A stretch of 64,000 nt of DNA, taken from contig MSJI02000529.1 in NCBI GenBank assembly GCA_001931905.2, forward strand, positions 6,323 through 70,322, given 5' to 3'. The notes below the pieces were generated by a model. It was not told where the DNA came from and did no database searches. It was given only the letters and a program-made list of their open reading frames with translations. Below are positions 1-51,180 of the stretch, in pieces (positions within the stretch are counted from its first letter, which is position 1; the number at the start of each line of letters is the position of its first letter). The position numbers were made by a program, and so were the translations under genes. Source of the stretch: Cladosporium sp. IMV 00045. Taxonomy: Eukaryota; Ascomycota; Dothideomycetes; Cladosporiales; Cladosporiaceae.

Positions 1-89
1 GTTCAACAATAAACACCACGCGCGCACGTTGCACTAACAATCGCCTTGTTTGAGCCCGACCAGCCACTAACTCCCGCCCGTTCCTTCAG

Positions 90-2800
90 AACAACCCCAA
101 TCCTCACCAGCAGGGTCTCCCTCCACCACAACAGCCCCTCCAGCATCCCCGCCAGGCAGGCCTGATCCAACAACACCGTCCAAACTCGCCTCTCCAGCCG
201 CACTCCATCCACCACTCCACCTCCCAGGCTCCCTACCTGTCGCCGCATTCGTCCACCCACAGCGTCCCGCAGCATCATTCGCCTTACGTGCCCTCGGTCC
301 CCAGCTTGCCTTCGCAGCACTCCACCGAGCCGGCCTACTTCACTGCCAATCCTAGTCCCTACAGCACAAACAGTGCCACCGGCTCCTACGCTTCATCAGG
401 TACGCCTTTTCCCTCGTGTCGTTTTTCTGTGTAACCGTTGCTTTGTTTTTTGTTGTCGTCGTTCTGTTTCTTCCTTGCCTGCATGCATATGTATGGTTTC
501 CATTCGACAGCTCTGACAAATCCGACAGAGCCCAACGCCAACGATAACATGGCCACCCAAGCGGCCATGAGCCGCCAGCAGTACCCTCCCATCTCAAGTT
601 ATCAGACGCCACAGTCCAACTCGCCAGCATCGATTCACTCGCCCCAGCACGATGCTCAGGGTCGCCCGTTGTACGCCTTTCCGCCCATGGCCCAGTCGAT
701 GTACTATGGCCAACCCTACCAGATGCCGCAAGCACCGCAGTATGCCCAGCATCCCCAGGCACCCTCGCACCACCAACCGATGACATCTGCGCCTGTCTTG
801 ATGTCTCACCAGCAGCCTCAACATCAACAATCGATGCAGCAAACTCCGCAGTCAGTCCACTCGCAGCCCAGCATGATGGACTCGAAGCCGCCACCCCAGC
901 AGTCTATTCAGCGTCCACCTTCAGTGATCCCTCCTCCTCAGGGAACGCCTCACACGCCATCGGGGTCGACGATGGCAAGCATGCCCCCCGGATCCGCTGG
1001 TTCTGGCCCAAATTCAAGCGCTGCACCAGGGCCAATCCCTGCTACCACGCCACTGGTCGTACGCCAAGACCAAAGTGGTGTGCAGTGGATCGCTTTCGAA
1101 TATTCCAGAGATCGCGTGAAGATGGAGTACACCATCCGCTGCGATGTCGAGTCTGTCAACATCGACGAACTTTCCGCGGAATTCAAGCAAGCAAACTGTG
1201 TTTATCCTCGAGCCTGCTGCCAGAAGGATCAATACAAAGGCAACCGTCTGCACTACGAAAGCGAGTGCAATGCTGTCGGTTGGGCATTGGCGCAGCTTAA
1301 TCCTAACCTCAGAGAGAAGCGTGGATTGATTCAACGCGCAGTCGACAGCTGGAGGAACAGCAACCAAGACCCGCGGCTACGCAGCCGACGAGTACGAAGG
1401 CAAGCGAAGATTCACACAAGAAAGGCGACCGGGCCGAGCGCCGTCAGTCACCCTCAAGGTCCGCCAGTGCTGCCACCACACGGTCTGCCTCATGCCGGAA
1501 GCAGGCCTCCCGTGATGGGTCCCGGAGCATCTCAAATGCACCATCATGGCGCCGGAAGCGACGCCAGTGACGACGTTAGTGGTATGTTTCATCCGATGTG
1601 ACGAATGCTGTACTTTTACTGCATGCACATAATATTTTCACCTTTCATTTTTACGAGGACACATACATAGAGGCAGGGTTACCCTCATGCTTCGAGGGTG
1701 TACATTATGGAGTTTTAAGGCTTCTGTTTACATGGAGCCCATGCAAAAAAGATTATCGCGCATACACTTCCCTGTCGCTTTTTGTTTTTAGTCGTTGTTT
1801 TGCACCTACTCCCTCCCCCTTGTCGCTTCGCTTCGTCATACCCCTGTCGAAGATCGACCGCTAACTCGATGTGTTAATATAGGCGGAAATGAATACATCG
1901 CTGGCCCTCCGAGCCAACAACCTCAGTCTCAGCACTCGAGCTCACAAGCAGACCTATCATCACCGGCCAATGTTCGCTATTCGCAACAATTCTACCCAAC
2001 CTACCCCAGCCAACCCACCGCCGGCGGCGCCCACATGCCCGCCGTCCCAGACGCAATGGACACGAGCATGCACTCCCACGCCTCCACCCTAGCAACCCCC
2101 ATCGCGGCCTCCTCCTCCGCCAAGGAGGAAGACGAGGACCAAAAGCGCCACTTGTTCGGCGACGTGCCCGAATCCAAACGGAGAAAATTCATCCTCGTCG
2201 ATGACAACCAGCGCGGAACCCGCGTGCGAGTCCGCGTCATGCTCGACCAAGTCAACATGGACGAAATGCCCGATGCCCATCTGCGCACCAACGCCGTCTA
2301 CCCGAGATCGTACTACCCGCGTCAAATGCGTTCGCCGCCCGGCTCGCCGCGCGCACGCGGGCATTGGGATGATGAAGACGACACGACCGAAGGCTCGGGC
2401 GGAGCGAAGGGAACGACGCTCGTCCCCGTCTCTCTCATGGACGGGAGTGAAACGAAGCTGCCCGTCCCCAGAATGACGAAGAGCAGGCGAGGCAAGGAAT
2501 CGGCTCTCAACGAGCTGGGCTACCGCATGAGCTGGAGTCAGGCTAGGCAGTTCAATGGTCGGACTTTGTTCTTGCAGCGATCTCGTAAGTGGATCTGTCG
2601 ATGCCTCGTGTTGAGTTACCAAGAAGGTGTTGTTGCTAACACGAAATACAGTCGACGCCTACCGCAACAAAATGCGCAGCACCATGGTCGCCGGCGGGCA
2701 GGACGTCGCTTCCATCGCGCCGCACTTCGAGACGCGCGCTGGTAAGAGGAAGTGGCTGGATAGGACGAAGCGGGATAGGAGGGGTGGTGATTCGCCTTGA
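90..2800 (+). CDS. Glutamine/proline-rich protein with two DUF8032-like domains (5' partial)
   Basis: Exons read 90-399, 511-1581, 1883-2584 and 2652-2800, all in one frame across GT-AG introns. An acceptor at 88-89 means the first exon lies before the window. The N-terminal part is rich in Gln, Pro, Ser and His, like many fungal transcriptional co-regulators. Two related domains follow. The first (about 1050-1410) has WIAFEYSRDRVKMEY, a Cys-containing ANCVYPR step and a tryptophan-rich tail. The second (about 2180-2745) has RRKFILVDD, a TNAVYPRSYYPR step and ends in a basic GKRKWLDRTKRDRR tail that could be nuclear. The repeated pattern matches the uncharacterised fungal DUF8032 family, named from memory. 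Its function is unknown; a nuclear role is inferred from composition only. The intron at 1582-1882 is long (301 bases) for this genome. Confidence 0.8.
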
Positions 2801-4066
2801 TCGCCCGAAAAATCTCAATATTTTTTGGGAACAAAGAAGAGAATTCATGAAATCGACAGCAACGTTTTTCGGCCAAGGCAATGAAGCGAAAAGGCGAGCG
2901 GGAAGCGGCGCCACACAAAACGAAAGAAACTCGCGCGCCAACGAAGACACGACCAATTTCGACAAGGGTTCTACCTACAATTGCTGCAGTGCGTGTAGCG
3001 GCAGCAGCGCAGTCCCACCTCGGCTCCTTCCAACGCTCCATCGGTACAAGGTCTTGTGGGCAGAGAAGTCGGAAGAGCAGATCGAAGCTCTCCGCGCAAC
3101 ATAAACTGCCGGCCTCGACTCCTCCAAGACCTGACGAAACACGACAGCAATTACTGGCGTGGGCGCTTGGGCGAATCTGACCGGGGTTGGAGGGTAAACG
3201 GGTCTTCTTTTCTTTTTGTTCGATGTCTGTAATTCATGGGCTTGGTCGCCCTGGATTACTGGCGGTGTATGCGAATGTGAAGACGAAAGACAAGAGGCAG
3301 ACACGAAGAGGGAGAATGAGGATATGGTGCAATGATGTTGACGATAGGGGTAGGAAAGGAAGGGAGGAGTTATTGGTGATTATTACTAGACGGGCTGGGA
3401 TGGGGATAGGATAGGTAAAGGGAAGCGGGTTTGGGCAAGGAAGGAAGGGGTAGGGTAGAGAAGAAGTAATACGCGTCTTGAGAACAGGGAAATTCTTTTA
3501 ATGGTCAAACGATATTGGATTCAAAAGGCATTCTGCCTTATCATTCCTGTTTTCTCTTACATAGGCAGGCAGGACTGCTCTGCCTCTGCCTCTGCCTCAG
3601 CTTCTCGCCCCCGCCAGCACCACCTACTCATCAATCCGTTCCCCTCAGCGACCATGAATGAATCCAAGCATTTTCGCCACTTGGAGAGATCTGTCTCCTT
3701 GCTCCCTCGTTGACAATCGCGCTTTTTCCATGTGACACGCCTGCTGTGGTGCTTGCTGTGGCAACAAAGGGCAGGCCGGGTCGGCTTAAATCCTCTCCCC
3801 TTCCACGCATGAGCGCAGTGGGGACTGAAGCGCATCTTCGTGGCCGTGAGTCCTCCTCCGTCCGTCATGTTCCTCTTCGAGGGGGAGCAAGTTTACTCTA
3901 CGCGCTGGGAAGAATCTCAACGCCGGCGCGGGCATTGGAAGATCGCTGCTCTCCCGCATTTCGCGTTCAATCCCCCCCCAAGAGACTCTTTCGAAAGAGA
4001 GAAATCTTCCCCTTCTCTCCACTCATCTCGAAACCCTCACACCGAACACACAGCCTTTCATCATCA
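2801..4066. other. Intergenic, convergent 3' flanks
   Basis: This lies between the 3' ends of the DUF8032-like gene (+) and the F-box gene (-). It holds a short CTCTGC microsatellite near 3578-3598 and otherwise only short, unsupported frames. The copy 2 counterpart, 20370-21648, aligns only in patches, so it evolves as untranslated or spacer DNA. Confidence 0.6.
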
Positions 4067-4879
4067 TCACCGCACCCCCTCTCCCACAACCCCCTCAAAG
4101 TGCCAATCGCGATCACTCCCGACGAAGCCCTCGCTCCAAACGCCCGTGCTCGCAGCGCCTTTCGTCGCCTCGAACACGAAATCTCCCATCGTGATCCCCT
4201 CCTCGCGCTGGATCGCCGGCTCGCGACTCCGCCGCCACCTGCGCACCAGATGCAGCGCCGTGCACGGCGGTTGGCTGAGGTACATGCGGCGCCAGGAGGC
4301 GGTGGGGTGGGATGTTGCTTTGCTGGCTGTGGGTGGGAGGAGGAGGTTGAGGGATTCGTCGTCTTGGGGATCGGGTGAGGAGTCGGAGTGGGGTTGGGAT
4401 TGGTTCGCACTGTTTGCTCCGCCGACTGTGGACGAGCGAGTCCGACACGCCGCCGCGGCCGGGAAGGAAATGCATACGTCCCAACTCCACACTTCGGCGC
4501 CGGGTCTGCCGACGACGAGATCCTCGCGCGACGGTGGTAGGTTGACCAGCACGGGGGACACAGTGGGGTAGACGCCTGGGAAGGCGCGGAGGAGCAGGCG
4601 ATTATTCTGAGGACGGGTGTGGGCGGACGTGGCACCTGTGGCGGGGTTGAGGTAGGTGATGGGGGAGGAAGGAAGGTGCGGGTCGGGGGCGAAGAAGAGG
4701 GCGCGTTGCAGTTTGGGCGAGGCGACGATGGTGGACTGGAAGGCTTTGGAGACGCGCTGGGCGAGGAGCAGGTCGCGTTGGGGGAGGTGGATGAGGATTT
4801 GTTCGAGGATTTCGGGGAGGTGGATGGTGCGTGTTGTTGCTGAGGTGGGGTCTATTATTGGTGGTGTTGATGGTTCCAT
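4067..4879 (-). CDS. F-box protein, copy 1
   Basis: A single-exon gene of 270 residues. An F-box-like segment lies at about residues 19-60 (IHLPEILEQILIHLPQRDLL, then a conserved VSKAFQ and LQRALFF), the pattern that binds Skp1 in SCF ubiquitin ligases. The rest has no repeat (WD40, LRR) that would name a substrate. I chose the ATG at 4879 because the open frame upstream has only a TTG, and because copy 2 starts at the equivalent ATG and has the same length of 270. The middle (about residues 150-190) is Ser/Pro-rich and varies between copies, while the F-box and C-terminus are kept. It is convergent with the DUF8032-like gene. Confidence 0.75.
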   Translation of the reverse strand: MEPSTPPIIDPTSATTRTIHLPEILEQILIHLPQRDLLLAQRVSKAFQSTIVASPKLQRALFFAPDPHLPSSPITYLNPATGATSAHTRPQNNRLLLRAFPGVYPTVSPVLVNLPPSREDLVVGRPGAEVWSWDVCISFPAAAACRTRSSTVGGANSANQSQPHSDSSPDPQDDESLNLLLPPTASKATSHPTASWRRMYLSQPPCTALHLVRRWRRSREPAIQREEGITMGDFVFEATKGAASTGVWSEGFVGSDRDWHFEGVVGEGVR

Positions 4880-5842
4880 TGTTTCTTGCTGTAGCACGTC
4901 TACTCCAGTCAAGTTTGAAGTGATCGTCTTAAGTCCAGATGAATGAAGACGAGCTCAAGCAAGCATGCAGAAAGAAATAAGGAAACAGTAAAGCCAGACG
5001 AAGAACAAAAAGCAAAACCAACATACCTGACCTACCTTATCTCATTCCCCTTCGCAAGCATTGACGACGATGACACACGTGAGCATCTCATTGTTTACCC
5101 ATCCGCTCCAGCGGAAGGTTCAGACAAAAACGCAGAAGCTACCAAACAAAGCAAGAATGAAAGGATTGCCCATGACACGCGGGCGGTCCAGGATAAGGTA
5201 GAGGAAAACAAGGTAAAAGTACGGAATGTGAAATGTGATCATCGATCGTCCTTCGGCAGAAAGGAACATGAAGCTCTGGTGGTGGATGCTGGCCGGATGA
5301 GGGCGGAGGGGGATGGGCTTGGATGGATCGTATTTTTTTTCTTTTGCATTTTGGCGTGATAAGAACCTTGATTCTCTGTGATTTTAGCAGGTCTGCTTTG
5401 ATGGTTTTTGGCACTCAGGGCTGGAACATGACGGATGCAGAAGGATGATGATGTGCAGTGCATGTGAGGAGAGGGATGTGACGTTTGGCTGGCTGAGACA
5501 GTGACAGCTGATTGAGTTTGGGCTTGCGGGGCAGCAGCTTCTCCAGCGGGGGTTGACGGATCTCCATCTGTGAGGCCACGCTCGGCCACGCCATTTCTTG
5601 CATGTCTCGCGTGAAGTTCGCATTCAGTGAGGAACGTGGCATGATCGGATGTGGTTCTTCATCTTATCGTGGCATCGCTTCAAACTCTGCTCGAAAATTC
5701 AATCAGTTTCCTTCATCTCTGTCGTCACACCTTCCAAGCTGCGTCATCCTAGTTTTGTGGTTGAGCACGCAGAAATGATGCGATTGAACGAGATAGCAGC
5801 AGTGAGGAATCAACGGCGATCATTCATTACCCCCATTCATTA
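4880..5842. other. Intergenic: F-box promoter and lipase 3' flank
   Basis: Nearly 1 kb between the F-box start (-) and the lipase stop (-). It should contain the F-box promoter and lipase terminator. No coding pattern or RNA gene is visible. The counterpart 22462-23422 is similar but carries many small indels. Confidence 0.55.
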
Positions 5843-7951
5843 TCATCGTGATCTAGAATTCGCCCTTGACCCTCTCCCCGGCGACCCCTGAGCGTCAACA
5901 ACAATCGGTCCACTGTGCCTGACACCCACCGTAGCCTCCCTCTCACCCAACGGCGTAGCAAGAACAGCAGCCCTCGTAGAACCCACCTCCTCATCCTCCT
6001 CCTCCTCCGCCGCCGAATCCGTCGAGCTCCACCACCCCTCAGGTCTCGTCGGCCGCTCGACGCCGCGTTCCGTGCGCTCCGAAAGCGCCTCGGCCGTCAG
6101 CGGCGAGCTGGGCATGGCGAGCTCATGCTCCCTCTCGCCGCTCTGTCGGTGCGTTTGCTGCGAGTCGCGCGCGCGTGGCGATAGGATCCTGCGCGTCGAC
6201 TTAGCTATCACTGTTCCTTCTTGGGAGCTCGCGTCGCTGCGGACCGACGCTGACGTGGGCGCACGTACATGACCTGTGGCGCGAGCGGTGCCGGGGGGAG
6301 GATTCCTGCCGCTTCGCGCGGGCAGAGGCGATGGGCCGACTTGTGGGGTGAGAGCGAATCGCTCCGGGGCGCTGTCCTCGTCTTCTTCGCTTTCGTCGAG
6401 GTTTTCTTCGGCTGCTGTTGCGTCTTCTACGCCCCATTCGTACGCCTCGGTGCGGCGACGCTCTTCGACGTCTTGTCTTCTGTGGCGTTCGGAGTCGGAG
6501 TAGTTGGGTGGTAGGGATCCGTTGGGACTGTTCAGGTTTGATCGTTCGAGGATGCCGCGCTCGATGCCTTTCCACCCAGATCTCTCGGGCTTGGTCTTTG
6601 ATGGTAGGGCGTAGTTCTCAAGCGCTTCTAAGACGTGAGGGAAGACGAGCTTGTCAACATCACTAGCCCATAGAAGATCCAAGTGCTCGTACTTCTGAAT
6701 GCCCTTCGCTACGGTGTGCTTAGGCAATTCTTTGAGCATGAGCTTGATATCAACAAGGCTGTCGCTGCCGCCATAGACAAGCACGATCGGCGTCTTGATA
6801 TTTCTCGTGGGGAATTTGGCGACCTTGTAGTATTTGTTCCCGTTGCTCATGGCCAGAGGCTTCGCCACCTCATCATCGAACATCTGAAACGTTCCATTTC
6901 GGATGATCTGGAACCAATGCACAACAGTCTTGACGCTGGAGAAGCTGTACAAGTGCGGGTACGCCGCGAGTTTCTGGTGCGCGGTGATGTTCTTCGTACT
7001 CCAGTTGAAGAGGAATTTGAGGCTCTTGTCAATGAAGTAAGTGAAGATGCCCGGATAGAGCAACGCTTGCCACATTGTCGCCGAGCCGAGGATAGCGCGC
7101 CGGCCAAAGGCAAGGAAGAGAACTTCAGGACTGGATTTGACGAAACTGGCGACGATGCCTGATGCGAGGCCTGGAGGAGCCATGGCGGGCGCGAGGGCGA
7201 CGAAGACGTCGACTTTGTCGTTCAGCGTTGGGTGGATGGAAAGAGTAGCGAAGGCTTGCGCGGTTCCTTGACTGAAACCAACATAGCTCAAGCTGGGTTG
7301 TTTGGTGGTCGTGAGAATGTAGTCAATGGTATCTGGGATATCATGGAAAGCGAATTGATCCATGCTGAAGTTCCAGAAAGGGATGTCGGCAGGGCTGTGA
7401 TGGAGGCTTTTCTTGCTGTACTTGTTGCCTCTGTTGTTGCCCAGCCAGACATCGAAGCCTTGCTCCACCAGCACAAACGGCAGACAGCGCTCTTGCTCCG
7501 TAAGGCAGACCCACACCTCGCTGTTCATCATGAGTCCGTGGTGCAAGTAGACGACCTTCTTCTCGACACTACCAGGGCCGGCGTTAACGCGCTGGTCCTC
7601 CTCTCCCCTGCGCCAGCCCAGCCGGTGGACGCCCAGCAGATATCCATCGCCTGTCTGTACAATGTGCTCCTCCGCGTAGTATCCGTACAGCTCGCATAGC
7701 TCCACGAAATCACTCGCTTGGGCGATGGGGCTCGAGACCGACTTCTTCTTGTTACGACTCCGTCGTGAGTGTGGCGATGAGAGGCTGTTGAACGCATTTC
7801 GCGAAATGCGGTAAAGAAGGCGCACGATCGGACCGGGTAGTAGGAGTGTTACCGTCCGGGCTATAACTTCCAGTATGAGGAACGCGAAAGAGGCGATGAG
7901 GGCCAGGTACTCGGACAGAAAGAGTCGGCCAATGAAGGGGACTCGCGGCAT
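5843..7951 (-). CDS. Membrane-anchored acid/sterol-ester-type lipase, copy 1
   Basis: The 702-residue product belongs to the alpha/beta-hydrolase lipases related to yeast Tgl1/Yeh1/Yeh2 (steryl ester hydrolases). A hydrophobic stretch at about residues 9-48 should anchor it in the ER or lipid-droplet membrane. The lipase-associated segment (GYYAEEHIVQTGDGYLLGVHR) is at about 89-110, the oxyanion HHGL at 137-140, the nucleophile serine in GFSQG near 227, the acid in GGSDSLVD near 397 and the histidine in YEHLDLLW near 423. A long, acidic and Ser/Arg-rich C-terminal tail (about 455-702) is poorly conserved in general yet 95% shared with copy 2. I chose the ATG at 7951; the longer frame starts with a non-ATG codon. 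Exact substrate is inferred from family membership. Confidence 0.85.
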   Translation of the reverse strand: MPRVPFIGRLFLSEYLALIASFAFLILEVIARTVTLLLPGPIVRLLYRISRNAFNSLSSPHSRRSRNKKKSVSSPIAQASDFVELCELYGYYAEEHIVQTGDGYLLGVHRLGWRRGEEDQRVNAGPGSVEKKVVYLHHGLMMNSEVWVCLTEQERCLPFVLVEQGFDVWLGNNRGNKYSKKSLHHSPADIPFWNFSMDQFAFHDIPDTIDYILTTTKQPSLSYVGFSQGTAQAFATLSIHPTLNDKVDVFVALAPAMAPPGLASGIVASFVKSSPEVLFLAFGRRAILGSATMWQALLYPGIFTYFIDKSLKFLFNWSTKNITAHQKLAAYPHLYSFSSVKTVVHWFQIIRNGTFQMFDDEVAKPLAMSNGNKYYKVAKFPTRNIKTPIVLVYGGSDSLVDIKLMLKELPKHTVAKGIQKYEHLDLLWASDVDKLVFPHVLEALENYALPSKTKPERSGWKGIERGILERSNLNSPNGSLPPNYSDSERHRRQDVEERRRTEAYEWGVEDATAAEENLDESEEDEDSAPERFALTPQVGPSPLPARSGRNPPPGTARATGHVRAPTSASVRSDASSQEGTVIAKSTRRILSPRARDSQQTHRQSGEREHELAMPSSPLTAEALSERTERGVERPTRPEGWWSSTDSAAEEEEDEEVGSTRAAVLATPLGEREATVGVRHSGPIVVDAQGSPGRGSRANSRSR

Positions 7952-8403
7952 GGCGAAGGGCGTACGAATGTTCGAATGGTAGGTGCGCAATAGATTAACA
8001 ATACATTAGGTGTATGGAGTTCAGATCATCATTCGAAAAACAAAGTACATGTACGTGTAGGAGTTCGGTTGTCGGTGAGATGCACGTATGTGCATGGCTG
8101 GGGGAAGAGGGAGATTGGCAGTTCAAGCATGACGATGGCTGCATTATTGTCCGCTCGAGCATGTGATAGTGGCCCGGGCTTCTTTCAATCCACCCAATTG
8201 GTTCTAGTTCAGAGGTAAACCAGCCGATGCCTTGCAAGCCGCATTTGATGGTCCATTTCATTGATGCGTTCAATCAAACATCGCGATTCGTTTATACAGC
8301 CTCGGACGCCTGCCACGCTCGGTATCGCATTACCGTCTGAGCTTCTAAACAAAAACAAGACGATTACGAAAGCTTGCACGCGCGCAAGCCTCCCCGGCGC
8401 AAA
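7952..8403. promoter_or_regulatory. Divergent promoter region, lipase / PET191 (copy 1)
   Basis: About 450 bases separate the divergent starts of the lipase (-) and PET191 (+), so both promoters must lie here. No named site is evident. The copy 2 equivalent is 25550-25992. Confidence 0.5.
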
Positions 8404-8846
8404 ATGCCGTCCTCATGCAAAGACATCCGTACGTCCCTCAGCGCACGCACACAACACCCACCGAACCCCTCCTCCTCTGACCAAGAACCCCCACAGGCGC
8501 CGCCCTGGCAACCTGCCTCCAAGAATCCGACTGCGTGATGGTACATCGTAACACGCCCGCCGACTGCCTGCGCCCGCCTCTCAAAGACACTCTCCCCACG
8601 CAATGCCTGCAACTGATCCGCGGCTACGGCGAATGCAAGCGAGGGCTCGTCGACATGCGCAAGCGCTTCAGAGGAAACAAGCCTATTTCTACTAGCAAAG
8701 AGTTGGAGGGCGAGTCCGGTGGGCAGCTTTATGCTGGTAAGAGCGCGTATGAGGGGACGGGGCCGAAGGGCAGCGATGGCAGGGAGGATGCGGAGTTTGA
8801 GAAGTATGTGAGGAATGACGGTATTGAGGATGTTAGGAAGAAGTAG
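8404..8846 (+). CDS. PET191: PET191-like cytochrome c oxidase assembly protein, copy 1
   Basis: Two exons, 8404-8428 and 8497-8846, give 124 residues. The N-terminus MPSSCKDIR is followed after the intron by cysteines at 15, 21 and 32, the block TPADCLRPPLKDTLPTQC, and GYGECKRGLVDMRKRFRGN, which is diagnostic for Pet191/COA5, a twin-Cys mitochondrial intermembrane-space factor needed for assembly of complex IV. The very short first exon was missed by simple frame reading; both copies have the same donor and acceptor. The C-terminal 50 residues are charged and contain a YAGKSAYEGTGP segment. It is divergent from the lipase and convergent with the dehydrogenase gene. Confidence 0.93.
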
Positions 8847-9545
8847 GCGTGATGATGGCAGAAGGGTTTGCGAATGTATTAGTCAGGAGGGGGGTTTCTT
8901 TTCAAAAAGTGGCATTGGGTGGCGTTTATGGATTTATACAAGGATCATCGCATCTCAGAGTGGGGAGATACCACATTGTACAGATATGTACGGGCAATGT
9001 ATGATACAGGTCATTGAACATTTAACCTTGCGGCTTCGTCTCATCTCAGTAGCCTTGTTGGCTCGCGAGACGGGACGAAATGGGTGAATATTGAAGAGCC
9101 TAGGACTCACGAGGTCTTTCATGCAATAGGCGAGGTCAGATTCGGTGTGAATCCATGGGCTTGATGGTCCAGAAGTCCAAACAAACAATCGTTCTATGTA
9201 TCTACGACAGCATTGACGCCAGCAGCTTGCCCAAAACGACACTTACATCTCTGGATTTGAGGCTCTGCGCTCGACACCGTATCTGCTAAGCCTTTCATCG
9301 TGAACAGCATACCGACATCGTCTTTCACATTTATCACTTCGCCATTGAGAGTGGCAATTGCCTGCTTGTGGCAATATTCTGGCTCCGCTAACAACTTTCA
9401 TACAACAAAGCTGGCAACAACGTCGAATCATATCTTCATTTTCATATCAAGCTCGATACAACGTCACCACGCAGCCAAGATGATTGACATCTAACCAACT
9501 TTTTCATCCTAGCAACATGAACTAATCTCCTTTACCACGCTCGAC
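8847..9545. other. Conserved convergent spacer (copy 1)
   Basis: The spacer lies between the 3' ends of PET191 (+) and the dehydrogenase (-). Part of it (about 9097-9385) differs from copy 2 at only about 15 of 288 positions, as little as coding DNA. No frame has a convincing start or is kept open in both copies. Copy 2 equivalent: 26437-27139. Confidence 0.55.
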
Positions 9546-12866: not shown

Positions 12867-12909
12867 ATAATGCGATGTTAAGATTTAATGATTAATACGA
12901 TGCAAGCAC

Positions 12910-18960: not shown

Positions 18961-18980
18961 NNNNNNNNNNNNNNNNNNNN
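18961..18980. other. Assembly gap of 20 N between the two copies
   Basis: Exactly 20 unknown bases separate the cut hexA leader of copy 1 from the interior of the DUF8032-like gene of copy 2. A round fixed number suggests a placeholder rather than a measured distance. Reading frames that cross it are meaningless. Confidence 0.99.
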
Positions 18981-28740: not shown

Positions 28741-30462
28741 ATGTCTAATACTTGGGACGCGAAACACCGGGCCGTTTCAGAATCAGGCGCTATGCCCAAC
28801 CAGGGAGAATCGGAGCCTGTCGAGTTGAGCAAGAAATCTAGCGACGACAGTCTGGATGCTCGTGGTGATGTTGTGGTCGACTATGGAAGAGATTCCAAAG
28901 AAGCACAAAGTCACGCCAATGCACATGAACAAGATTATGACCCCGAGAAGGCGGCCAGCGATTGTCCGATCGAACGGACGACCAGTACCGCCTCTCAACT
29001 TCCAATGTCAAGAGCTCGCGCCATCGCTCTTGTAATGACTTTGACTGGTGCCGCCTTCCTGAACACAATGTCCAATCAAGCCGTGGTCATCATCCTACCA
29101 ACCATCGGCCGCGATCTTGACATCCCCGCCGCTCGCCAACAATGGATCGTTTCGGCCTACTCGCTCACCTTCGGTTGTTTCTTGTTGCTCTGGGGTCGTC
29201 TGGCAGACGTGTGCGGCAAGAGGAAGGTGTTCATTTGGGGTTCGGCTTGGGTATGTGCAACGACACTGATATGTCCTTTCGTTCCTAATGAGATCGGCTT
29301 CGATATCTTCCGCGGCTTGCAAGGTCTTGGAGCCGCCGCCAACGTGCCAACCGCGATTGGAATTCTTGGAGTCACATTCGGTCCTGGAAAGGCGAAGAAC
29401 TATGCCTTCGCGACCTATTCGTCAGGAGCGCCTCTGGGAAGCGTGATCGGAAACATTCTGGGTGGTGTTGTCGGACAGTACGCAAGCTGGAGATGGGTTC
29501 TTTGGATTCTTGCCATCCTCGCAGCGATGGTCACCGTTGCTGGCCATTTCGTGATTCCAATGCCAAAAGCTCAAACGCAACCCTTGGACCTCAAGAACGC
29601 CGTCGACTGGGCTGGAGGCGCAACGGTAACCGTGGCAATCCTCGTACTCCTTTTCGCACTCACGGAAGGAAACGTCGTGGGCTGGGCAACACCCTGGATC
29701 CCCGTCCTGATCGTTCTCGCCGCGCTCCTCCTCACGGCCTTCGTGTTCTGGCAGCTCTACCTCGAGAAGAAAACCACACGCCGCCCATTGATGAAAATCT
29801 CAATCTTCAAAGACGTGAAAGTCTCCGCGGCCATGTTCACCATGATGGCCTTCTTCGGTGCTTTCAGCAACTTCCTCGTCTTCGCCACGTTCTACTACCA
29901 GGACTACCAAGGCCTGAACGCGATCCAGACCACGCTGCGATTCTTGCCCACCGGCGTCGTGGGAATCATCGCCATCTTCATCGTTTCGCAGATTCTGTCT
30001 CGCGTCAAGGTCTACTACATTCTGATGTGGGGCATGTTGTGCTGCGCCGTGGCTTGCCTTCTCTTCGCCGTCCCCATCCCGCCGAGCACGACTTATTGGG
30101 CATTTGGGTTTCCGGCCATGTGTCTCTCTGTACTCGGCGCGGATGCGCTGTTCCCTTCCCTGCTGTTGTTCACGGCTCAGAGCTTGCCCAAGGAAGACCA
30201 GGCACTCGGTGGAGCAACTATCAACTGCGTCGGTCAGGTGGGCCGCGCCATTGGGTTGGCGATCTGTACTGCGATTCAGGTCGCTGTGCAGGAGTCGAAG
30301 GAGTCGAGCTCGTCTTCTGCCGTCTCTGGTGCAGGTAGTGAGGGCAACCCGGCTTATTTGAGCGGTTTGCGAGGTGCGCTGTGGTTTAATTTTGGTACTG
30401 CCATGGCGGGTTTCCTTGTGGTTGCACTCACTTTCAGAGGCACTGGGAAAGTTGGGAAGTAG
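28741..30462 (+). CDS. MFS drug-type transporter (DHA2-like), copy 2
   Basis: The 573-residue partner, one Ser shorter in the C-terminal Ser run. The membrane core is nearly identical, including the motif A region. Most changes fall in the N-terminal cytosolic tail and the loop after motif A (VFIWGSAWVC versus VFIGGSVWVC). Upstream, the frames of the two copies disagree, which supports the MSNTW start in both. Confidence 0.87.
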   Translation: MSNTWDAKHRAVSESGAMPNQGESEPVELSKKSSDDSLDARGDVVVDYGRDSKEAQSHANAHEQDYDPEKAASDCPIERTTSTASQLPMSRARAIALVMTLTGAAFLNTMSNQAVVIILPTIGRDLDIPAARQQWIVSAYSLTFGCFLLLWGRLADVCGKRKVFIWGSAWVCATTLICPFVPNEIGFDIFRGLQGLGAAANVPTAIGILGVTFGPGKAKNYAFATYSSGAPLGSVIGNILGGVVGQYASWRWVLWILAILAAMVTVAGHFVIPMPKAQTQPLDLKNAVDWAGGATVTVAILVLLFALTEGNVVGWATPWIPVLIVLAALLLTAFVFWQLYLEKKTTRRPLMKISIFKDVKVSAAMFTMMAFFGAFSNFLVFATFYYQDYQGLNAIQTTLRFLPTGVVGIIAIFIVSQILSRVKVYYILMWGMLCCAVACLLFAVPIPPSTTYWAFGFPAMCLSVLGADALFPSLLLFTAQSLPKEDQALGGATINCVGQVGRAIGLAICTAIQVAVQESKESSSSSAVSGAGSEGNPAYLSGLRGALWFNFGTAMAGFLVVALTFRGTGKVGK

Positions 30463-30499
30463 ATAATGCGATGTTTAGACGATTTAATGATTGATACGA

Positions 30500-30947
30500 A
30501 ACAACTTCAGAATCTCATAAAGATGACTTAACCGCTGAGATACCTGTGCTCAGTATTGTGCATCTCCGTGACATCTATGCTGGTACCAGCAGCTTCACTA
30601 TGTCATGAGAAGGGCTTAACCATTGAGATAGGTGAAATATCTTCAAGCTGCGGCTTCAAGCTATCATTAGGTTTGTAGGGTTAAGTCATAAGACAAAGCT
30701 ACGATATTTTCCAATCGTCACTTCATCATACAACTTTGAATAATTATATGATACGAAATAGGCGCGATGATCGCGCACGTCAAGGCGTGACCCTCCATCA
30801 AATGAGAGAGGATTAGAATCTCATGAGAAGTATCTCAAGATGATCTCAATTGTCGTATGGATCGACGACCCTTTAACCAGCCTGGTAGACACCAAGAGCA
30901 ACAACGTGGGGGTTGATCTTGCTCAGGTTGAAGGGAGTGAGGTAAGG
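30500..30947. other. About 450 bases present only in copy 2, between convergent genes
   Basis: Copy 1 goes from the transporter stop to the esterase stop in 43 bases; here there are 494. The extra DNA lies between shared TGATACGA and TGCAAACAC. It contains imperfect internal repeats of CTTAACC..TGAGATA (about 30529 and 30616) and of AGAATCTCAT (about 30510 and 30816). No long terminal inverted repeats or clear target duplication were found, so it may be an insertion here or a deletion in copy 1. Confidence 0.7.
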
Positions 30948-30956
30948 TGCAAACAC

Positions 30957-32582
30957 CTACAGACGAGCCTTGCCGCTATCGCCGTTGACGACGTTCCAGA
31001 CTTCAAGGCCTTGCTCCCACCTATCGTCTTCCCAAATGTCTGTTTCGCCATCACTTCTCCACCTCCTCATCTCCTTCGGCTTGGTAGGGCCCCAGTTTGC
31101 GGGCTCACCTTTCACGAAAGCAGCGAATCCTTCATTCCACCCCTTCAGCCACTTCTTCTCCTGTTCCGTCAACCCTTCAGCAAAATCCGTACCCCAGAAC
31201 CAGATAGGCGTGTCCGTGGAGTGCGTGACTTCCCAGTCAACAGGCACGGTGTCGTCAACGCACTTGAGCCTTCTATCAAACCGATACCGCATCACATCTT
31301 TGCCCGGCTGCAGACCCGCCTTGAACAGTGTGTTTTGAAATCCGCGCTCGAGGTGGTGGACTTGGACATCGGCGTAGATATGCCCAAAGAGATCCGGCCA
31401 ATCCTTACAGCCCGACGGCAGAGATTGGGCGCCGCCGCAGTAGTGATGCATGAGTTTGGATACCACTCTCTCCGGGTAGTCGCCGCAAAGGCGCTTGTAC
31501 ACCGCTTCGTAGGAATTTTCCGGGATGCGCCAGTTGCGGTACAAATTGTGTTCGTCTCTGCACTCTCCGTTGAGGAGCTTGATGCCGCGGCGCTTCATTC
31601 TGTTGGCGAAGTCGCCGCTGTTGATTTTGTGGATGATGTCCTCGGAGATGAAGACGCCGTCTGATGTCGCGCGGAACTCGCTGATTTCCATCTCGCTTTG
31701 GATCTCGACGAGTTTCTGGTGAGGAATGGATCGCAATTTAGCGAGCTTTTCTTCTCCTGACAAGCGAGAGGAGATTCCGAGCCTTGACGAGAATTCGTCG
31801 AACTGCTTTTGCTGTTCGTCTAGAGTCTTGGGTTGGACACCAGGGCTGTTTGAGAGCATGACTGCTCTTTTGATGATAGCTTTCTCGTCAGGGATATGGT
31901 ACAGTTCGTACGCCAATTGCTGGTACGTAGAGTGCGAGCCAGCAGAGTAGCCACCGACGGTGATATTGGATGGGTTCCCTCCGAAGAGTGAGATGTTCTT
32001 GTAAGTCCATTCCAAAGCAGCTCTCTGATCCCAGAAGCCCATATTGCCAACAGGCTCTCCGCCATTCTTCTTTGCCTCATCTGCGAGTTCTTTACTTGCG
32101 AGGAAGCCGAAAGCATTCAATCTGTACGAGGGCAATACAACGATAGCTTTGAATGCAGAATCCATCAGCCTACCCAAAGCAGCTGGCTTCCAATTGGCGT
32201 TACCCCATTGCAGAAAACCGCCATGGATGTAGAAGAAGACCGGCCAGCCTCCTTGAGGCGCCTCTTCCGCCGGGATCCAGATATTCAATTGCAAACAGTT
32301 CTCATCCAAGAGGGAAGCATCAGGCGGATGGCGATTTTTAGGCTGGGGGCAAATGCCAGTGCCGCCGGTGAAACGGCCTGGGTTCACTCTTGTGCCATAT
32401 CTATAGCATGGCGGCAACTTGCGAGGCGCGCGAAACCTATAAGGTCCCAATGGAGGTAGAGCATAGGGAAGCCCGCCGAAGTATCGAAGAGTCGGTTTGC
32501 CGTCGTCACTGCTCACGGTGAGGCCCTCCAGGTGTCCGAGCGCTCCGGCATCGAATCGGTAGGTTTCTTGTTTGTACGACAT
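30957..32582 (-). CDS. Type-B carboxylesterase with C-terminal ARL, copy 2
   Basis: The 541-residue partner of the copy 1 esterase, with GYSAGS, HGG and CLQLNIW unchanged. About 10% of bases differ in a sample of the 3' end, but nearly all are silent. The ARL C-terminus is conserved although nearby codons changed, consistent with selection on a peroxisomal signal. After the TAG stop the same frame continues open for 27 codons in this copy only. Confidence 0.87.
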   Translation of the reverse strand: MSYKQETYRFDAGALGHLEGLTVSSDDGKPTLRYFGGLPYALPPLGPYRFRAPRKLPPCYRYGTRVNPGRFTGGTGICPQPKNRHPPDASLLDENCLQLNIWIPAEEAPQGGWPVFFYIHGGFLQWGNANWKPAALGRLMDSAFKAIVVLPSYRLNAFGFLASKELADEAKKNGGEPVGNMGFWDQRAALEWTYKNISLFGGNPSNITVGGYSAGSHSTYQQLAYELYHIPDEKAIIKRAVMLSNSPGVQPKTLDEQQKQFDEFSSRLGISSRLSGEEKLAKLRSIPHQKLVEIQSEMEISEFRATSDGVFISEDIIHKINSGDFANRMKRRGIKLLNGECRDEHNLYRNWRIPENSYEAVYKRLCGDYPERVVSKLMHHYCGGAQSLPSGCKDWPDLFGHIYADVQVHHLERGFQNTLFKAGLQPGKDVMRYRFDRRLKCVDDTVPVDWEVTHSTDTPIWFWGTDFAEGLTEQEKKWLKGWNEGFAAFVKGEPANWGPTKPKEMRRWRSDGETDIWEDDRWEQGLEVWNVVNGDSGKARL

Positions 32583-33065
32583 GGTGGGTTCACGTCAATT
32601 GATCGATAGTATAGCAAAAAGGATTCAATGAAACTACACGCGGAAGGCGAGATACATATATTTCTCATCTTATCTCTTAGACCCGAGAATCGGTATCTGA
32701 CTCCACTTGATTGTGAGCTTGCGTGCTTGTAGAGGTCGGAAGATAGAGCGCCGCCCTCTGAGTAGCCTCGGTAGTTCAAGTCTCTCTCCCCATTTTCCAG
32801 TGAAGCAACTTTCCCAAGGATGGGGATCGCTGTCAGAAATCTCGTCCTGGTAACTGTAAGCCCTTGTACCTGCAGGGCTGCGACGATGATGTAGTGGGTG
32901 GCCGTAGCTTTCTAGACTTCAACAATGCCCGGTTTCGCGAGACGCCATGTGCGCAACGCCAGAGCATACGTCAGGATGGTACGACCTGCTCTCGTAGAAA
33001 TTTCACGGTAACACTTCTTGTTCCCCCCTTCTTGTGTCACCAAATAAGCACATCATTTCACCGCC
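32583..33065. promoter_or_regulatory. Divergent promoter region, esterase / H-lectin-like gene (copy 2)
   Basis: Counterpart of 14536-15009; no specific site recognised. Confidence 0.5.
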
Positions 33066-34200
33066 ATGACATCTTGGATCCCAGGCTTTGGAGGAGGCAG
33101 CTCTGGCGTTAGCTGGGAGCAGAAGCAGGCGGACGAGGCAAAGGCCTGGCACGAAAGCCATTTGGGAACGGGAGATGAATATTTTACGCATTCTCGCTCT
33201 GCCGTTGAGGATAAAGGTAGCTTCAAGATCACAGAAGTGCGTGAGCGCCCCAAGGAAGCCGACAGAGGAGGTGCTCGGCTGGTCAAGATCCCGAAAGGGA
33301 AGTATGATGAACCACCTCAGGTAATACGCTGCAGACAACCTCCTTGCACTGGATGACCGCTGAGATGAAGTATGACAGGTAGCCAAAGGTCTCAAGTCCT
33401 GCGACCTGTCGCATACAGCCAAAGACCATTTCCAGAAACAAGCGATCGATCTCGAGCTGCACGTCTTCGCGGATACCCCCACCGTTTTGTCGCCTTTAAT
33501 CCAGGCATGGAGGTCCGACGAGAAAACCAAGATGATATACGATGCCGAGATGCAATGGATCGAAGCCAAGCAAGGCGCGAAAGACTGCTTGTTCCTCAGT
33601 ACAGCCTTCGATCTAGCCAACGGAGAGACGGAGAAACAGGTGGATTTCCCTCAAGCTTTCCCCAAAGGCACCGACGTTGAGGTTGTAGGCTGGGTACAAA
33701 GCTTCAGATTCGGCACGGAGAAGGGTGAGGACTATGTTTGCGATTTCTGGCCGAAGAAAGTCAACAACAAGGGTTTCGTCGCGCATGCTGAGTGTGGTGG
33801 GAATACCGAGAGGTTGACAGTCACTTGGGTCGTGATGAAGAAGGGGAAGCAGAATGTCGCTACTGGAAATTTCAGCACGAGCAATGAGGGCGATAAGGAG
33901 GGAAGTGGCTTCCAGGAAGCGAGCGGGAGCGTGAATTTCGAGGAAGGTGCTTTCGACAAGGCCCCTACAGTGCTCGTGGCTCTCAGTCAGTTCGACTTGG
34001 AGGGTGGCAAGGATTTGAGAGTTGGTGTCGAAGTCGAGGATGTGTCGGAAGAGGGATTCTCGTGGACTTTACGTGAGTGCTCCTTTGAGGTTGGACTTTC
34101 TCGAGTGCCTGTGCTGACAATTTCTATAGGTACTTGGGGTGACGATGCTCCGGAGGCGCTTCGTAGTGCAGAAGCCTCGTTCATCGCTCTTGGATACTAA
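33066..34200 (+). CDS. Protein with two H-type lectin-like repeats, copy 2
   Basis: Exons 33066-33320, 33379-34072 and 34130-34200 encode 339 residues, the same length and splice phases as copy 1. Both lectin-like repeats are unchanged in their key aromatic and glycine positions (GFVAHA, GFSWTL, TWGDD, SAEASFIAL). The few replacements are conservative. A sugar-binding role is inferred. Confidence 0.75.
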
Positions 34201-34596
34201 TAATAATGATATGCGCTTTTAAATCGCTCGGTTTGCTGAGTTGTTTAGTGGCGAGACAATGTAGACGACTGTAATTGATGAGGATTGGTGCGACTTCTCT
34301 GCATCAAGAACCGACAGCATCGAACATGAACCGTCAGTTGGTCACATGCGAAGCCTCTCATCCACCCAGTACACGGAAAGAGGTGTGAAGTCCTAGCCAC
34401 GTGCGAGCCAAGTCGCAGACTTCACTTACAAGCGCTGCTGCCTAGACCCGCTTTTCTGTTTGCGTCTTTCACCAGTCTAGACTTGTTCTCAACTCGACCA
34501 GCTAGCTGGGCAAGCTTCTCTACTTTGACGCTCCACCAACTTCCTACTTTAATCTTGTGAAAAACACCCGCCTTCAGCAAATCGCATCGCAACACC
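34201..34596. promoter_or_regulatory. Spacer and BTB gene leader (copy 2)
   Basis: Counterpart of 16144-16523, visibly more diverged than the spacers on its left. No site recognised. Confidence 0.45.
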
Positions 34597-35413
34597 ATGG
34601 TCGAACCGCCACCGGTTGCGCCTGGTAGATTCCAATCGTGAGTACACGACAGTTCTAAAACGCCAGGGTCTCGGGCTAATGTGGTTAGATTCTACAACAA
34701 TGCGGCTTTCGCCGATGTTGTTATCTCTTGGACTGATTTTTTTTCGCCCAAGAAATTGAAGCCTGGGTTCACATATCCTCAGCGCATCACCATGAACGCA
34801 CATCGCATTGTGCTTGGCGCTGGCTCGAGTGCGTTTCGCCGTTACTTTGAGGTAGCCACTTCACTTTTCCCACCTGAGTTACTTGATGCTCGGGCATAGC
34901 ATGCTGATCTGTTTCTGTCAGGAACACCCGGATGACAAGGACATCGATATCGGCGAGGTTGTTGGTAGCAAAACTTGGATGGGTATGCAGCAGGGGGCGG
35001 CCTACGAAATGGTGCTCAAATACCTGTACGGCATGCCCATTTTCACCGATGGTGAAGAGATTCAACCAGACTTACTCCTCATGCTACACGACCTTGCAAA
35101 GGTATTTGAAATGCCTAGCCTAAGCGAGCACACAATCGTCTTGTTTGAACGCTCCCTCGAAGCGTGCATTGTCGATCTCAAAACCGGGCTCGTCAAGGAC
35201 AAGCCGCAAGTCGAGAAGTTCATCCAGCACATCGAGACCCTCAACAAGGAAGACTTCAAACTCCTCGAAAAAGTTGTCATCAAGGCTTTCTGCAAGCACT
35301 ACAGCTTGATTTGCAAGCATAAGTACTATCCATATCTCCTCGGCAAACATCCGCAACTGCCGAATCTCATGCTGGAGTACATTTCTCGCGAGCGCGACGG
35401 CCTTTTACTCTAG
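34597..35413 (+). CDS. BTB/POZ-domain protein, copy 2 (highly diverged pair)
   Basis: Exons 34597-34637, 34689-34851 and 34922-35413 encode 231 residues. BTB features: FADVVI, a basic loop, NAHRIVLGAGSSAFRRYFE, VLKYLYGMPIF, PSLSEHTI and CKHYSLI. It is 11 residues longer than copy 1 because of an insert in the first beta strands (about residues 25-40) and length changes before VLKYLYGMP. The protein is about 50% identical to its partner, in a block where neighbours are above 95%. Both frames and all splice sites are intact, so this is divergence of working genes, not decay. Confidence 0.78.
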
Positions 35414-37139
35414 AAACCTGACGAGATCTTTGGCAAAGGGCTTTCAGGGGAAGTACTTGCACGGAGGATATTGTGACTGCGAAAACCCCAAGAAGGGTAA
35501 AGTTCTTTGGACTTTTGATTGTTTCATTCTACTAGAACCAGATTGATCAGAAAACAAGCCACGTCAAGAGTCACTTGTTCAGGCATCTCGATCCGAGTTT
35601 CACATCTCTTGTGTTTTCTGTACAGCTCACTTGACAAGCACCGCTGTATGCACCCACTTGTCGTTTGCACTCATGCCACACTCTAGTGCTGTTTTGAACA
35701 TCATATTGAGCACTTCATTCAACCTCTGAGAACAACATTCACGTTCGTTTTGAGCTATGTGACCCTCGCGATACCTCCTCTTGTCATCATCAATGACCGG
35801 CTTTCAAACATCTTCATGAAGTTCTAATCACAGACGATAGTGTACCCCCTGCTGTCCATCATTGACCACAAGGATGTATGCCTGCAGATCACTTGGGAAC
35901 TTCCACTTGCACAAAACACACAGAAACGGCCGAGAGCGATCTTGAGCAATCAACCCAAAAAGGCGACCGCCAAATTGAACCCTTGTCCACCCTTCCAATC
36001 GAACGTCGTCAAGATTTTGTAGACCGGCAACGAGGCTGCTCTTCGGAGCATGACCGGAAATTACTACAAACATTACAGCGAGAGATCGAGATTTCGTAGA
36101 CCTTGGTTACAGGGAAAACTGAATCTCTGGAGAACATAAGAGCGGATATAAGGTTCTGTGGCCATGTAAGTAACTACATGGCGAGCTGGTGAAATGGCCA
36201 ATTGCTTTCGAGTTGTTGACAAAAGGCGTGGACCTGAGTGTGCCGTTTGTCGTTCTGTATCAATGGCATTGAGAACGTTTTCATTCTTCGTTGGGAAAAA
36301 AAAAGTCAAAGTAGACAATGCAACAAGACCCTGGTCAGTCGGTCAGTGGTCAATCTGGGTACTTACCTAGACAGTAGTGCCATGTCGTTCCTATTCCAGA
36401 CGTCAGCAGAGGCTCATACGCGAAGTCCCTACATGTATCTTCTATCATGTAGGTACCTACATTATTCAACGCATCGAGGTAACATGTTCAGAAGTCACTC
36501 GCTCGGTTCGGAGTTCAAGGTACATTCACAAGCAGTTTTATCATGTAGATTCACGTTCAGACGACAATTAAATCTAAAACCCTCATACCAAGACTGACAA
36601 ATGTTTTTGTCACGGCAGTAAAACAGTGATAGACTCGCACATAGCATGAGCATGCTGATTCGGATGCATGAAAGGACGGTGCAGGCTTGCAGAATAGCTT
36701 TTAAAGAAAGAGAAAAAGCGAAACCCTAAGAGCGGAAGAGTGCATAAACTTCCAGCGAGTAGACGCACGACGTGCATCCACGCGCGTTTTAGCGGACGGG
36801 GGGTAGTGAGACGCCGACAAAAGCGAATCGAGCACATAATCACGGACTCGACGGGACGATTCGCAATGCAAAGTGCAAGCCTCATGTGTGAAGTGTCGGT
36901 GGCAGCAAGCAAAGAAGGGCGGTGGCTGGATTTGTGGATGCAGGTAAGACGGGGATTGGAGGGAAGAGGGCCCAATTGCTGCTGACCACGCAACGTTGTC
37001 GGTGGAGAGAGGTGGCAGGGTTTGGGAGGCCTGGAAGAGACTAAGGCTGGCCTAGGGAGATCGATCATGAATGGAGTGACCGAGGTAGAGATGGATGTTC
37101 TTGTAGCATTGGCCACAGGGAGACGTTGCTCTGGAGAGA
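35414..37139. other. Intergenic between BTB and hexA promoter (copy 2)
   Basis: About 600 bases longer than in copy 1. The stretch 35550-36300 has no clear match in copy 1. No coding pattern, RNA gene or transposon ends seen; a poly-A run is at about 36296. Confidence 0.5.
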
Positions 37140-37678
37140 TAGAAGTGGACGATTCACTAACAACGACGACAATGCGAGGAGGCTGGGATTGGGAGAGAAG
37201 CCAGAGCTCTCTCTGGCAGGATACGCCAAAGTGAGCTGATTACCCGATTGAGGAAGATGGTACGGGATTTCCGGTTGCTGTGGCGGGAGAGATGGTTTGA
37301 GACTAAAGGGAAGCTTCGACCCCCTGTTGACCTCGCCGCCAACACAATCCCCAGCCGCCCGCCCCTCTTCTGTTCCCTCCATGCCCCATGCCCAAACAAC
37401 ACATCATCTCCTTCTGACACTCACTCGCCGCCTCTCGTCCCGACTCGACTCGTAAACCACTAAACTGTAGCTTGCTTTTGCTCGCCTGCAGCCATCTCTC
37501 TCTGACCGCCCACTCTCCTCACTCCACCCGCACGTCAGCTCCTGTGCTGTCGCTGTTAAAAGCCCTCATCACCTTCTGCCTCTAGTCAGGCTTGTTTGCT
37601 CTGCAAGTCGCGTTGCTGTCTTGCAGAGTGTTCAGGTCACTGCAAAGTCGCCAGGCTGGATTTCGACGCCAGAGTCCC
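37140..37678 (+). promoter_or_regulatory. hexA: hexA promoter and non-coding leader exon
   Basis: CT-rich promoter DNA (37330-37560) leads into a leader that ends at a strong donor, GTGAGT at 37679. The frame that would continue into the HEX-1 exon has a TAA at 37557 and no ATG, so the leader is non-coding for HEX-1. The same DNA occurs before the gap in copy 1. Confidence 0.65.
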
Positions 37679-37919
37679 GTGAGTATTCCCTTGTTCACGC
37701 ATGTCATATCAACGAACATTGGAAGAGGAAGACGAGGAAGAAGAGGAACGGCGACCTCGCGACGGCCTGCTTGACTATCAGTCGATCATTGCGACACCGA
37801 CATTGTCAACCCTAGCAGCAGTCGCGCGCGCGCACAGTCGGCGCAATCATACCGCTTTTCCCCAACCAACAACACGAACAACAACATCTTCTAGACCACC
37901 AATGCTAACCACACTACAG

Positions 37920-51163: not shown

Positions 51164-51180
51164 CTTTCTGTGACTGCTTT

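What the first reader, a model, noticed from the sequence alone, without database searches (positions are those of the whole stretch)
1407..37685. Two diverged copies of an 18-kb gene block joined head to tail across a 20-N gap: homeologues mis-joined, or a real tandem duplication
Nine shared genes keep order and strand. Coding samples differ by about 4-10%, mostly silently, so both copies have been under purifying selection for a long time. The gap cuts one gene at each side (hexA on the left, the DUF8032-like gene on the right), and these are the opposite ends of the same block. Both contig ends lie in tracts identical between copies (144 bases before the gap, 104 after). That is where an assembler collapses two subgenomes or haplotypes, so an artefact is likely. 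Either way it shows a duplicated or hybrid genome.
Basis: partly seen in the sequence, partly recalled or inferred. Interest (0 to 1): 0.75.

Follow-up and report, generated by a model that had tools for sequence, protein, structure and literature searches.

The report
Two parental gene copies falsely joined
The apparent 18-kb tandem duplication is almost certainly an assembly mistake in which the two parental versions of one chromosome region, in a Cladosporium-like fungus carrying two diverged genome sets, were strung end to end; it matters because such joins appear to recur in this assembly, even at the mating-type locus, where one would imitate a self-fertile arrangement.

Summary
In detail: 1407-18960 and 18981-37685 are collinear copies (88.7% ungapped identity) across a 20-N gap, with identical tracts of 144 and 104 bp beside it. 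The tandem is almost certainly false. Copy 2's right flank is collinear at about 90% for 48 kb with the start of contig C495, which begins 1.2 kb past the homologue of copy 1's end and carries the 3' part of a second hexA. A lipase probe from the block finds two places genome-wide. Silent divergence of block and flank pairs is similar. Three more same-scaffold, same-strand pairs turned up: two across 20-N gaps (C546, C761), one not inspected for a gap (C713). Of 18 Cpn60-family places, 16 form 8 pairs at 93-98%. C713 holds the mating-type region twice, with an HMG box in one copy and an alpha box in the other. Nearest named proteins are from Cladosporium fusiforme and C. halotolerans; assembly statistics resemble C. 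sphaerospermum IMV 00045 (50.2 Mb, MaSuRCA), nearly twice the 26.6-Mb UM 843 assembly. Best reading: a heterozygous diploid or hybrid of two lineages of opposite mating type, its overlapping homeologous contigs laid in tandem. A mixed culture is not excluded.

The parts
1..283 (+). Stretch 100% identical to the last 283 bp of contig C748 (C748:47678-47960), the likely left-hand partner of copy 2
   Evidence: C526 left of the window is withheld, so the full length of the identity could not be seen
438..1601 (+).
   Evidence: no Pfam match
1407..18960 (+). Copy 1 of the block (homeologue A, end of the left contig)
18961..18980 (.). 20-N scaffold gap between two contigs that overlap by about 18 kb
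   Evidence: similar 20-N gaps at C546:102573-102592 and C761:51987-52006
18981..37685 (+). Copy 2 of the block (homeologue B, start of the right contig)
4070..4879 (-). F-box protein, copy 1 (90.4% protein identity to its copy 2 counterpart)
   Evidence: (given as 4067-4912)
5846..7951 (-). Lipase/cholesterol esterase-like gene, copy 1; two places found in the genome (this and copy 2)
   Evidence: (given as 5843-7990)
23423..25588 (-). Lipase-like gene, copy 2 (98.2% protein identity to copy 1)
9549..10349 (-). Short-chain dehydrogenase, copy 1 (98.5% protein identity to copy 2, 27140-27943)
11142..12863 (+). MFS transporter, copy 1 (96.7% protein identity to copy 2)
   Evidence: (given as 10938-12866)
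12913..14535 (-). Carboxylesterase, copy 1 (96.3% protein identity to copy 2, 30957-32582)
15476..16069 (+). H-type lectin gene part, copy 1 (97.0% protein identity to copy 2)
   Evidence: (given as 15428-16072)
30500..30947 (.). 448-bp insertion in copy 2, or deletion in copy 1, between the MFS and carboxylesterase genes
38937..39626 (+). hexA (Woronin body major protein), 3' coding part, copy 2; its homeologue is at the start of C495 (230 of 230 residues identical, dS 0.058)
38922..64000 (+). Right flank of copy 2, collinear with C495 from base 1 (88.7-92.1% in segments over 1 kb; collinearity runs on to the C526 end, C495:47532)

Best explanation
The window comes from a filamentous ascomycete close to Cladosporium whose assembly holds two diverged genome sets (about 9-11% nucleotide difference here, dS about 0.26-0.29). 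The left part of scaffold C526 (window 1-18960) belongs to set A and continues, after about 1.2 kb not assembled twice, into contig C495. The right part (18981 onward) belongs to set B and is most likely preceded by contig C748, after about 1.1 kb not assembled twice. The two contigs therefore overlap by about 18 kb on homologous chromosomes. Shown: the copies, the partner contigs, the copy number by two probes, similar same-scaffold pairs, two more 20-N gaps between such pairs, and opposite mating-type domains. Inferred: the phase; that the assembler broke contigs in tracts identical between sets; that read pairs from near-identical regions linked both contigs; and that their overlap (negative gap) was written as a fixed 20-N gap because divergence prevented merging. 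The likeliest biology is a heterozygous diploid or hybrid made from two lineages of opposite mating type. The confidence given is for the mis-join of two diverged sets; given that, I put a diploid or hybrid (against a mixture or self-doubling) at about 0.7.
For: (1) Copy 2's right flank matches the start of C495 at 91%, collinear over C526:45244-93168 = C495:1-47532. (2) The 3' part of a second hexA lies at the start of C495. (3) A 2.1-kb lipase probe finds 2 places genome-wide, both on C526; a 261-bp hexA-side probe also 2. (4) Divergence of copies is close to that of homeologous flanks: 88.7% v 91.2% ungapped identity; ORF pairs of 400 codons or more, median dS 0.29 (3 in the block) v 0.26 (8 in the flank), medians by hand. 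(5) Left side: C748 ends on window 1-283 at 100% identity, and its interior has an 86% partner on another contig, C559. (6) 7 of 7 examined contig ends lie in identical tracts of 95-434 bp (104, 144, 283, 434, 95, 191, 179), though only 7.8% (block) and 10.5% (flank) of aligned columns lie in identical runs of 70 bp or more. (7) Doubling is not local: 16 of 18 Cpn60-family places form 8 pairs at 93.0-97.7%. (8) Similar joins: C546 (second copy starts right after a 20-N gap, collinear again 5 kb further on) and C761 (copies on both sides of a 20-N gap); C713 holds two same-strand copies of the mating-type region 14 kb apart. (9) On C713 one copy has an HMG box (20027-20281) and the other an alpha box (34640-34945), each inside the interval where the copies do not match. 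(10) A published assembly of closely similar size, contig number and G+C, made with MaSuRCA, exists: C. sphaerospermum IMV 00045 (PMC5391430).
Against: No reads or coverage were available. Which contig belongs to which set (phase) is inferred; an unnamed third lineage in the protein database is about equally close to both copies, so it does not phase them. C526:1-6322 is withheld, so the C748 join rests on 283 bp. 2 of 18 Cpn60 places (C520, C917) have no partner among the 18, and only one COX3 and one alpha box were found, so doubling is incomplete or partly collapsed. Gene-tag spacing in relatives (lipase to dynein chain: 13 tags in C. fusiforme, 22 in C. halotolerans) neither supports nor excludes a tandem. 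(a 10-kb block probe) did not report even the window's own place, so it cannot serve as a copy count, and the tool's counts are lower bounds for repeats and large families. dS of all 21 flank ORF pairs scatters widely (0.06-0.35).
Confidence: 0.93

Rival explanations
1. A true tandem duplication lies in one set (whole C526), and the other set (C748 then C495) lost, or failed to assemble, its copy of the block. This fits the fact that C748 ends just before the block and C495 begins just after it.
For: C748 ends at the homologue of window 283 and C495 starts at that of 38922, bracketing the block; a scaffold links the copies.
Against: Copy divergence would be close to homeologue divergence by coincidence. 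Three other same-scaffold pairs exist, two with 20-N gaps. The block edges coincide exactly with contig ends in identical tracts. The rDNA suggests that RIP has acted in this genome (33 of 33 substitutions C-to-T or G-to-A), yet the copies differ symmetrically (305/277 and 299/283) and keep long ORFs.
Confidence: 0.04
2. Mixed culture: the DNA came from two Cladosporium strains or species of opposite mating type, not from one hybrid or diploid organism. The scaffold join is still false (this rival concerns the biology, not the mis-join).
For: The assembly evidence (pairs, mating-type domains) is also expected from a mixture; no ploidy data.
Against: Only one COX3 place and one 5.8S locus without RIP-like changes were found, but closely related mitochondria or rDNA would collapse in assembly, so this is weak.
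Confidence: 0.22
3. Genome doubling within one lineage (autopolyploidy), the two sets having diverged after doubling. The scaffold join is still false.
For: Pairs at broadly similar divergence in several places.
Against: Different mating-type domains at homologous sites point to two parents; self-doubling of a haploid of one mating type gives the same type twice. Pair retention is high in the sample (8 of 10 Cpn60-family genes).
Confidence: 0.06

Closest known systems
False segmental duplication from separated haplotypes ('duplicated overlapping contigs', Kelley and Salzberg 2010, PMC2864568; passages read)
   Same: Two contigs overlapping at their ends, from two haplotypes of one place, laid side by side as an apparent duplication.
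   Different: Their haplotypes were close (for unplaced contigs they asked 96% identity); here the sets differ by about 10%, and the overlap is about 18 kb. Their test, mate pairs, was not available here.
Hortaea werneckii hybrid diploids (PMC7325687, PMC3744574; passages read)
   Same: A black ascomycete with two diverged gene sets, first read as genome duplication, later as hybridization; first assembly 51.6 Mb.
   Different: Different organism: the closest H. werneckii proteins listed are 61% and 53% identical. In the first sequenced H. werneckii strain both mating-type copies were MAT1-1 (PMC3744574); here the two copies differ in type.
Cladosporium sphaerospermum IMV 00045 assembly (PMC5391430, part 1 of 2 of the text read)
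   Same: 50,156,125 bp, 959 contigs, 53.05% G+C, MaSuRCA with k-mer 70; this genome: 49,867,185 bp, 954 contigs, about 53% G+C over C526 and C495 with Ns removed (by hand).
   Different: Size and contig number do not match exactly; identity of the strain is likely, not proven.
Cladosporium sphaerospermum UM 843 (PMC4886633; passages read)
   Same: Its mating-type gene lies beside Apn2 and Cox13; the exonuclease-domain ORF near the alpha box here fits Apn2 (domain, gene name recalled).
   Different: 26.6 Mb assembly, 55.3% G+C, a predicted MAT1-2 gene, said to be possibly heterothallic; here almost twice the size and both mating-type domains.

Membership tests
False segmental duplication (overlapping haplotype contigs) | Two adjacent contigs of one scaffold whose facing ends overlap by sequence | tested here: met
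   copy 1 is the right end of the left contig, copy 2 the left end of the right contig
False segmental duplication (overlapping haplotype contigs) | Two copies in total, one per haplotype, with haplotype partners in the flanks | tested here: met
   (two probes; left side partly inferred)
False segmental duplication (overlapping haplotype contigs) | Mate pairs more consistent when the contigs are overlaid | not testable with these tools
   no reads held
True tandem duplication | Sequenced junction between the copies | tested here: not met
   only 20 N at the junction
Hybrid or heterozygous diploid fungal genome | Genome-wide collinear pairs of similar divergence | tested here: met
   in a sample only: 8 of 10 Cpn60-family genes paired; 48-kb collinear flank; C748/C559
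Hybrid or heterozygous diploid fungal genome | Two parents, for example opposite mating types | tested here: met
   at the level of domains and their position
Hybrid or heterozygous diploid fungal genome | Both sets in one nucleus or clone | not testable with these tools
   needs ploidy or single-spore data
Homothallic fungus with linked MAT1-1 and MAT1-2 | Both mating-type genes truly linked on one chromosome | tested here: inconclusive

The most novel reading that the evidence does not exclude
The organism is a nearly complete allodiploid (or stable heterozygous diploid) Cladosporium formed by fusion of two lineages of opposite mating type about 10% apart, plausibly the radiotropic Chernobyl reactor-wall strain IMV 00045; its deposited assembly hides this by stringing homeologues in tandem, including a false homothallic mating-type locus.
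Probability: 0.55. Interest if true: 0.6.

Novelty: new member of a known kind. Interest (0 to 1): 0.42.

Why it matters
Anyone counting genes, looking for tandem duplications or reading mating type from this assembly would be misled: the false joins create apparent gene-cluster duplications and, probably, an apparent self-fertile mating locus. If one organism holds both sets, a Cladosporium had a hybrid or diploid phase between opposite mating types. No listed title or abstract start in our searches reports a hybrid or diploid Cladosporium genome, but the lists were capped (20 of 60 papers; 13 of 13; 2 of 2; 2 of 2; 12 of 19; 10 of 3,820, a poor query). The later paper on IMV 00045 (PMC6529585) has no occurrence of 'diploid' or 'hybrid'. 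If this is that strain, its stress tolerance was measured on an unrecognised diploid or on a mixture.

Tried and rejected
First guess Hortaea werneckii (about 50-Mb hybrid; from memory, then) was rejected: best listed H. werneckii proteins are 61% (carboxylesterase) and 53% (dynein light intermediate chain), while for the latter C. fusiforme gives 88% and C. halotolerans 79%.

One-sided RIP or decay of one copy: rejected, differences are symmetric and long ORFs are kept.

The first-named gene as a repeat that drives the join: the ORF at 438-1601 has paralogous stretches at 6 places, 74-85%; two of these (C690, C166) are about 96% alike over 3.5 kb and may be a homeologue pair. In one search all six matches stop by window 1604, so these places do not share the rest of the block and do not explain it.

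Third-lineage proteins as a phasing aid: about equidistant, no phase. Gene-tag spacing in relatives: inconclusive. The 448-bp indel: no terminal inverted repeats found, left unexplained. A literature search for the assembler's 20-N convention gave no usable passage (listing only); that negative gaps are written as 20 N in this assembler family is recalled, not shown. One search gave no ORF pairs for C748 v C559.
Full report
WHAT IS THERE. The window is G000:C526:6323-70322, in an assembly of 49,867,185 bases and 954 contigs. It has one N run, 20 bases at 18961-18980, and two collinear copies at 1407-18960 and 18981-37685. In 500-column windows identity falls to 64-76% in two stretches (about 2905-3780 and 16250-18000) and is 83-98% elsewhere. 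Eight ORF pairs have dS 0.24-0.37; seven have dN at or below 0.063 and one mechanical antisense ORF has 0.20. The cut genes are the ORF at 438-1601 and hexA, identified by its match to Woronin body major proteins.

BOTH BLOCK EDGES ARE CONTIG ENDS. Copy 1 is everything up to the gap and copy 2 everything after it, so 1407 and 37685 are set by the gap, not by a biological boundary. A probe from the right of copy 2 (37686-47000) finds one other place, C495:1-8010, 91% identical, starting at window 38922. C526:45244-93168 is collinear with C495:1-47532, with BLAST segments over 1 kb at 88.7-92.1%. So homeologue A of the right flank starts 1.2 kb beyond the homologue of copy 1's end, and it contains the 3' part of a second hexA (230 of 230 residues identical, dS 0.058). 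On the left, C748 ends on window 1-283 with 283 identical bases, and 5.3 kb inside C748 has an 86% partner on C559. The simplest chain is A: C559, C526 left, C495; B: C748, C526 right. The left joins are inferred, since C526:1-6322 is withheld.

COPY NUMBER AND AGE. A 2.1-kb lipase probe finds two places, 100% and 94%, both on C526; a 261-bp probe from copy 1's end also finds two. A 10-kb block probe was uninformative: it did not report its own place. Ungapped identity is 88.7% between copies and 91.2% between flank homeologues. ORF pairs of at least 400 codons have dS 0.24, 0.29 and 0.37 in the block and 0.17-0.30 in the flank (8 pairs); all 21 flank ORF pairs, short and overlapping ones included, span 0.06-0.35.

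THE DOUBLING IS NOT LOCAL. The Cpn60/TCP1 family gives 18 places. Pieces of 561-801 bp of all 18 form 8 pairs at 93.0-97.7%; C520 and C917 stay single. Six pairs lie on different contigs. Two lie on one contig. On C546 the second copy begins at 102593, directly after a 20-N gap (102573-102592), with 191 identical bases, and is still collinear 5 kb further on at 95%. On C761 copies lie on both sides of a 20-N gap (51987-52006), with 179 identical bases before it. This is the window's pattern again.

CONTIG ENDS SIT IN IDENTICAL TRACTS. Seven of seven examined ends lie in identical runs of 95 bp or more (104, 144, 283, 434, 95, 191, 179). The ends of C546 left of its gap, of C761 right of its gap and any in C713 were not examined. 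Only 7.8% (block) and 10.5% (flank) of aligned columns lie in identical runs of 70 bp or more. The published IMV 00045 assembly used a k-mer of 70, so breaks in longer identical tracts are what one expects; this alone would not separate tandem copies from homeologues.

MATING TYPE. One alpha-box place was found, C713:34640-34945. Eight kb around it match, on the same contig and strand, C713:17081-19016 (93%) and 21101-24279 (87%), leaving 19017-21100 unmatched; two further matches on C460 and C827 are short (about 150 bp, 75-76%). The unmatched interval holds an HMG box in two pieces 48 bp apart, as an intron would leave, C713:20027-20281. An ORF in the matching flank has an exonuclease domain and a weak GRF zinc-finger match, which fits APN2, a usual neighbour (recalled; also reported for UM 843). 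So the two sets appear to carry opposite mating types, and scaffold C713 lines them up in a way that imitates a homothallic locus.

ORGANISM. Nearest named proteins are from Cladosporium fusiforme (88% dynein chain, 91% lipase) and C. halotolerans (78% carboxylesterase, 79% dynein chain, 88% lipase); unnamed sequences are closer, at 95-98%. That these species belong to the C. sphaerospermum complex is recalled. The genome announcement on fungi chosen for the ISS lists C. sphaerospermum IMV 00045, from a Chernobyl reactor wall: 50,156,125 bp, 959 contigs, 53.05% G+C, MaSuRCA. C. sphaerospermum UM 843 is 26.6 Mb, with a predicted MAT1-2 gene; twice that is 53.3 Mb, so 49.9 Mb is about 94% of a doubled genome (arithmetic). 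The strain match is likely but not exact.

READING. The join is an assembly artefact of the known 'overlapping haplotype contigs' type (PMC2864568, passages). What it reveals is an assembly with two diverged sets and both mating-type domains. A hybrid or heterozygous diploid is favoured; a mixed culture is the main rival and cannot be excluded without reads or re-isolation. A real tandem needs similar ages, bracketing contig ends and recurrent 20-N pairs all to be coincidence.

Noticed in passing
G000:C713:17081-39000 (L067 = 31001-39000): Mating-type region present twice in the same orientation on one scaffold, HMG box in the first copy, alpha box in the second; a likely false homothallic locus.
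   Followed up: partly
G000:C220:35679-36170 (L065) v C517:19766-20258 (L066): A second 5.8S/ITS copy differs from the first at 33 substitutions, all G-to-A or C-to-T, plus one gap: it looks like a RIP-mutated rDNA pseudogene.
   Followed up: yes
window 1-1604; C690, C166, C756, C739, C713, C394: The gene called DUF8032-like has related stretches at six places, 74-85% DNA identity, in several reaching into the part upstream of the ORF; some lie on short contigs.
   Followed up: partly
window 30500-30947: 448-bp indel between homeologues, without terminal inverted repeats.
   Followed up: partly
G000:C889:54571-54795(-) and 87710-87934(+): Two HMG-box genes with equal ORF length (733 aa) on one contig in opposite orientation, 33 kb apart; perhaps another, inverted mis-join.
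   Followed up: no
G000:C737:10183-10953: Only one COX3 place was found, reported with 13 stop codons inside; mitochondrial copy or nuclear relic not checked.
   Followed up: no
window 60470-60668: Degenerate short repeat within the right flank.
   Followed up: no
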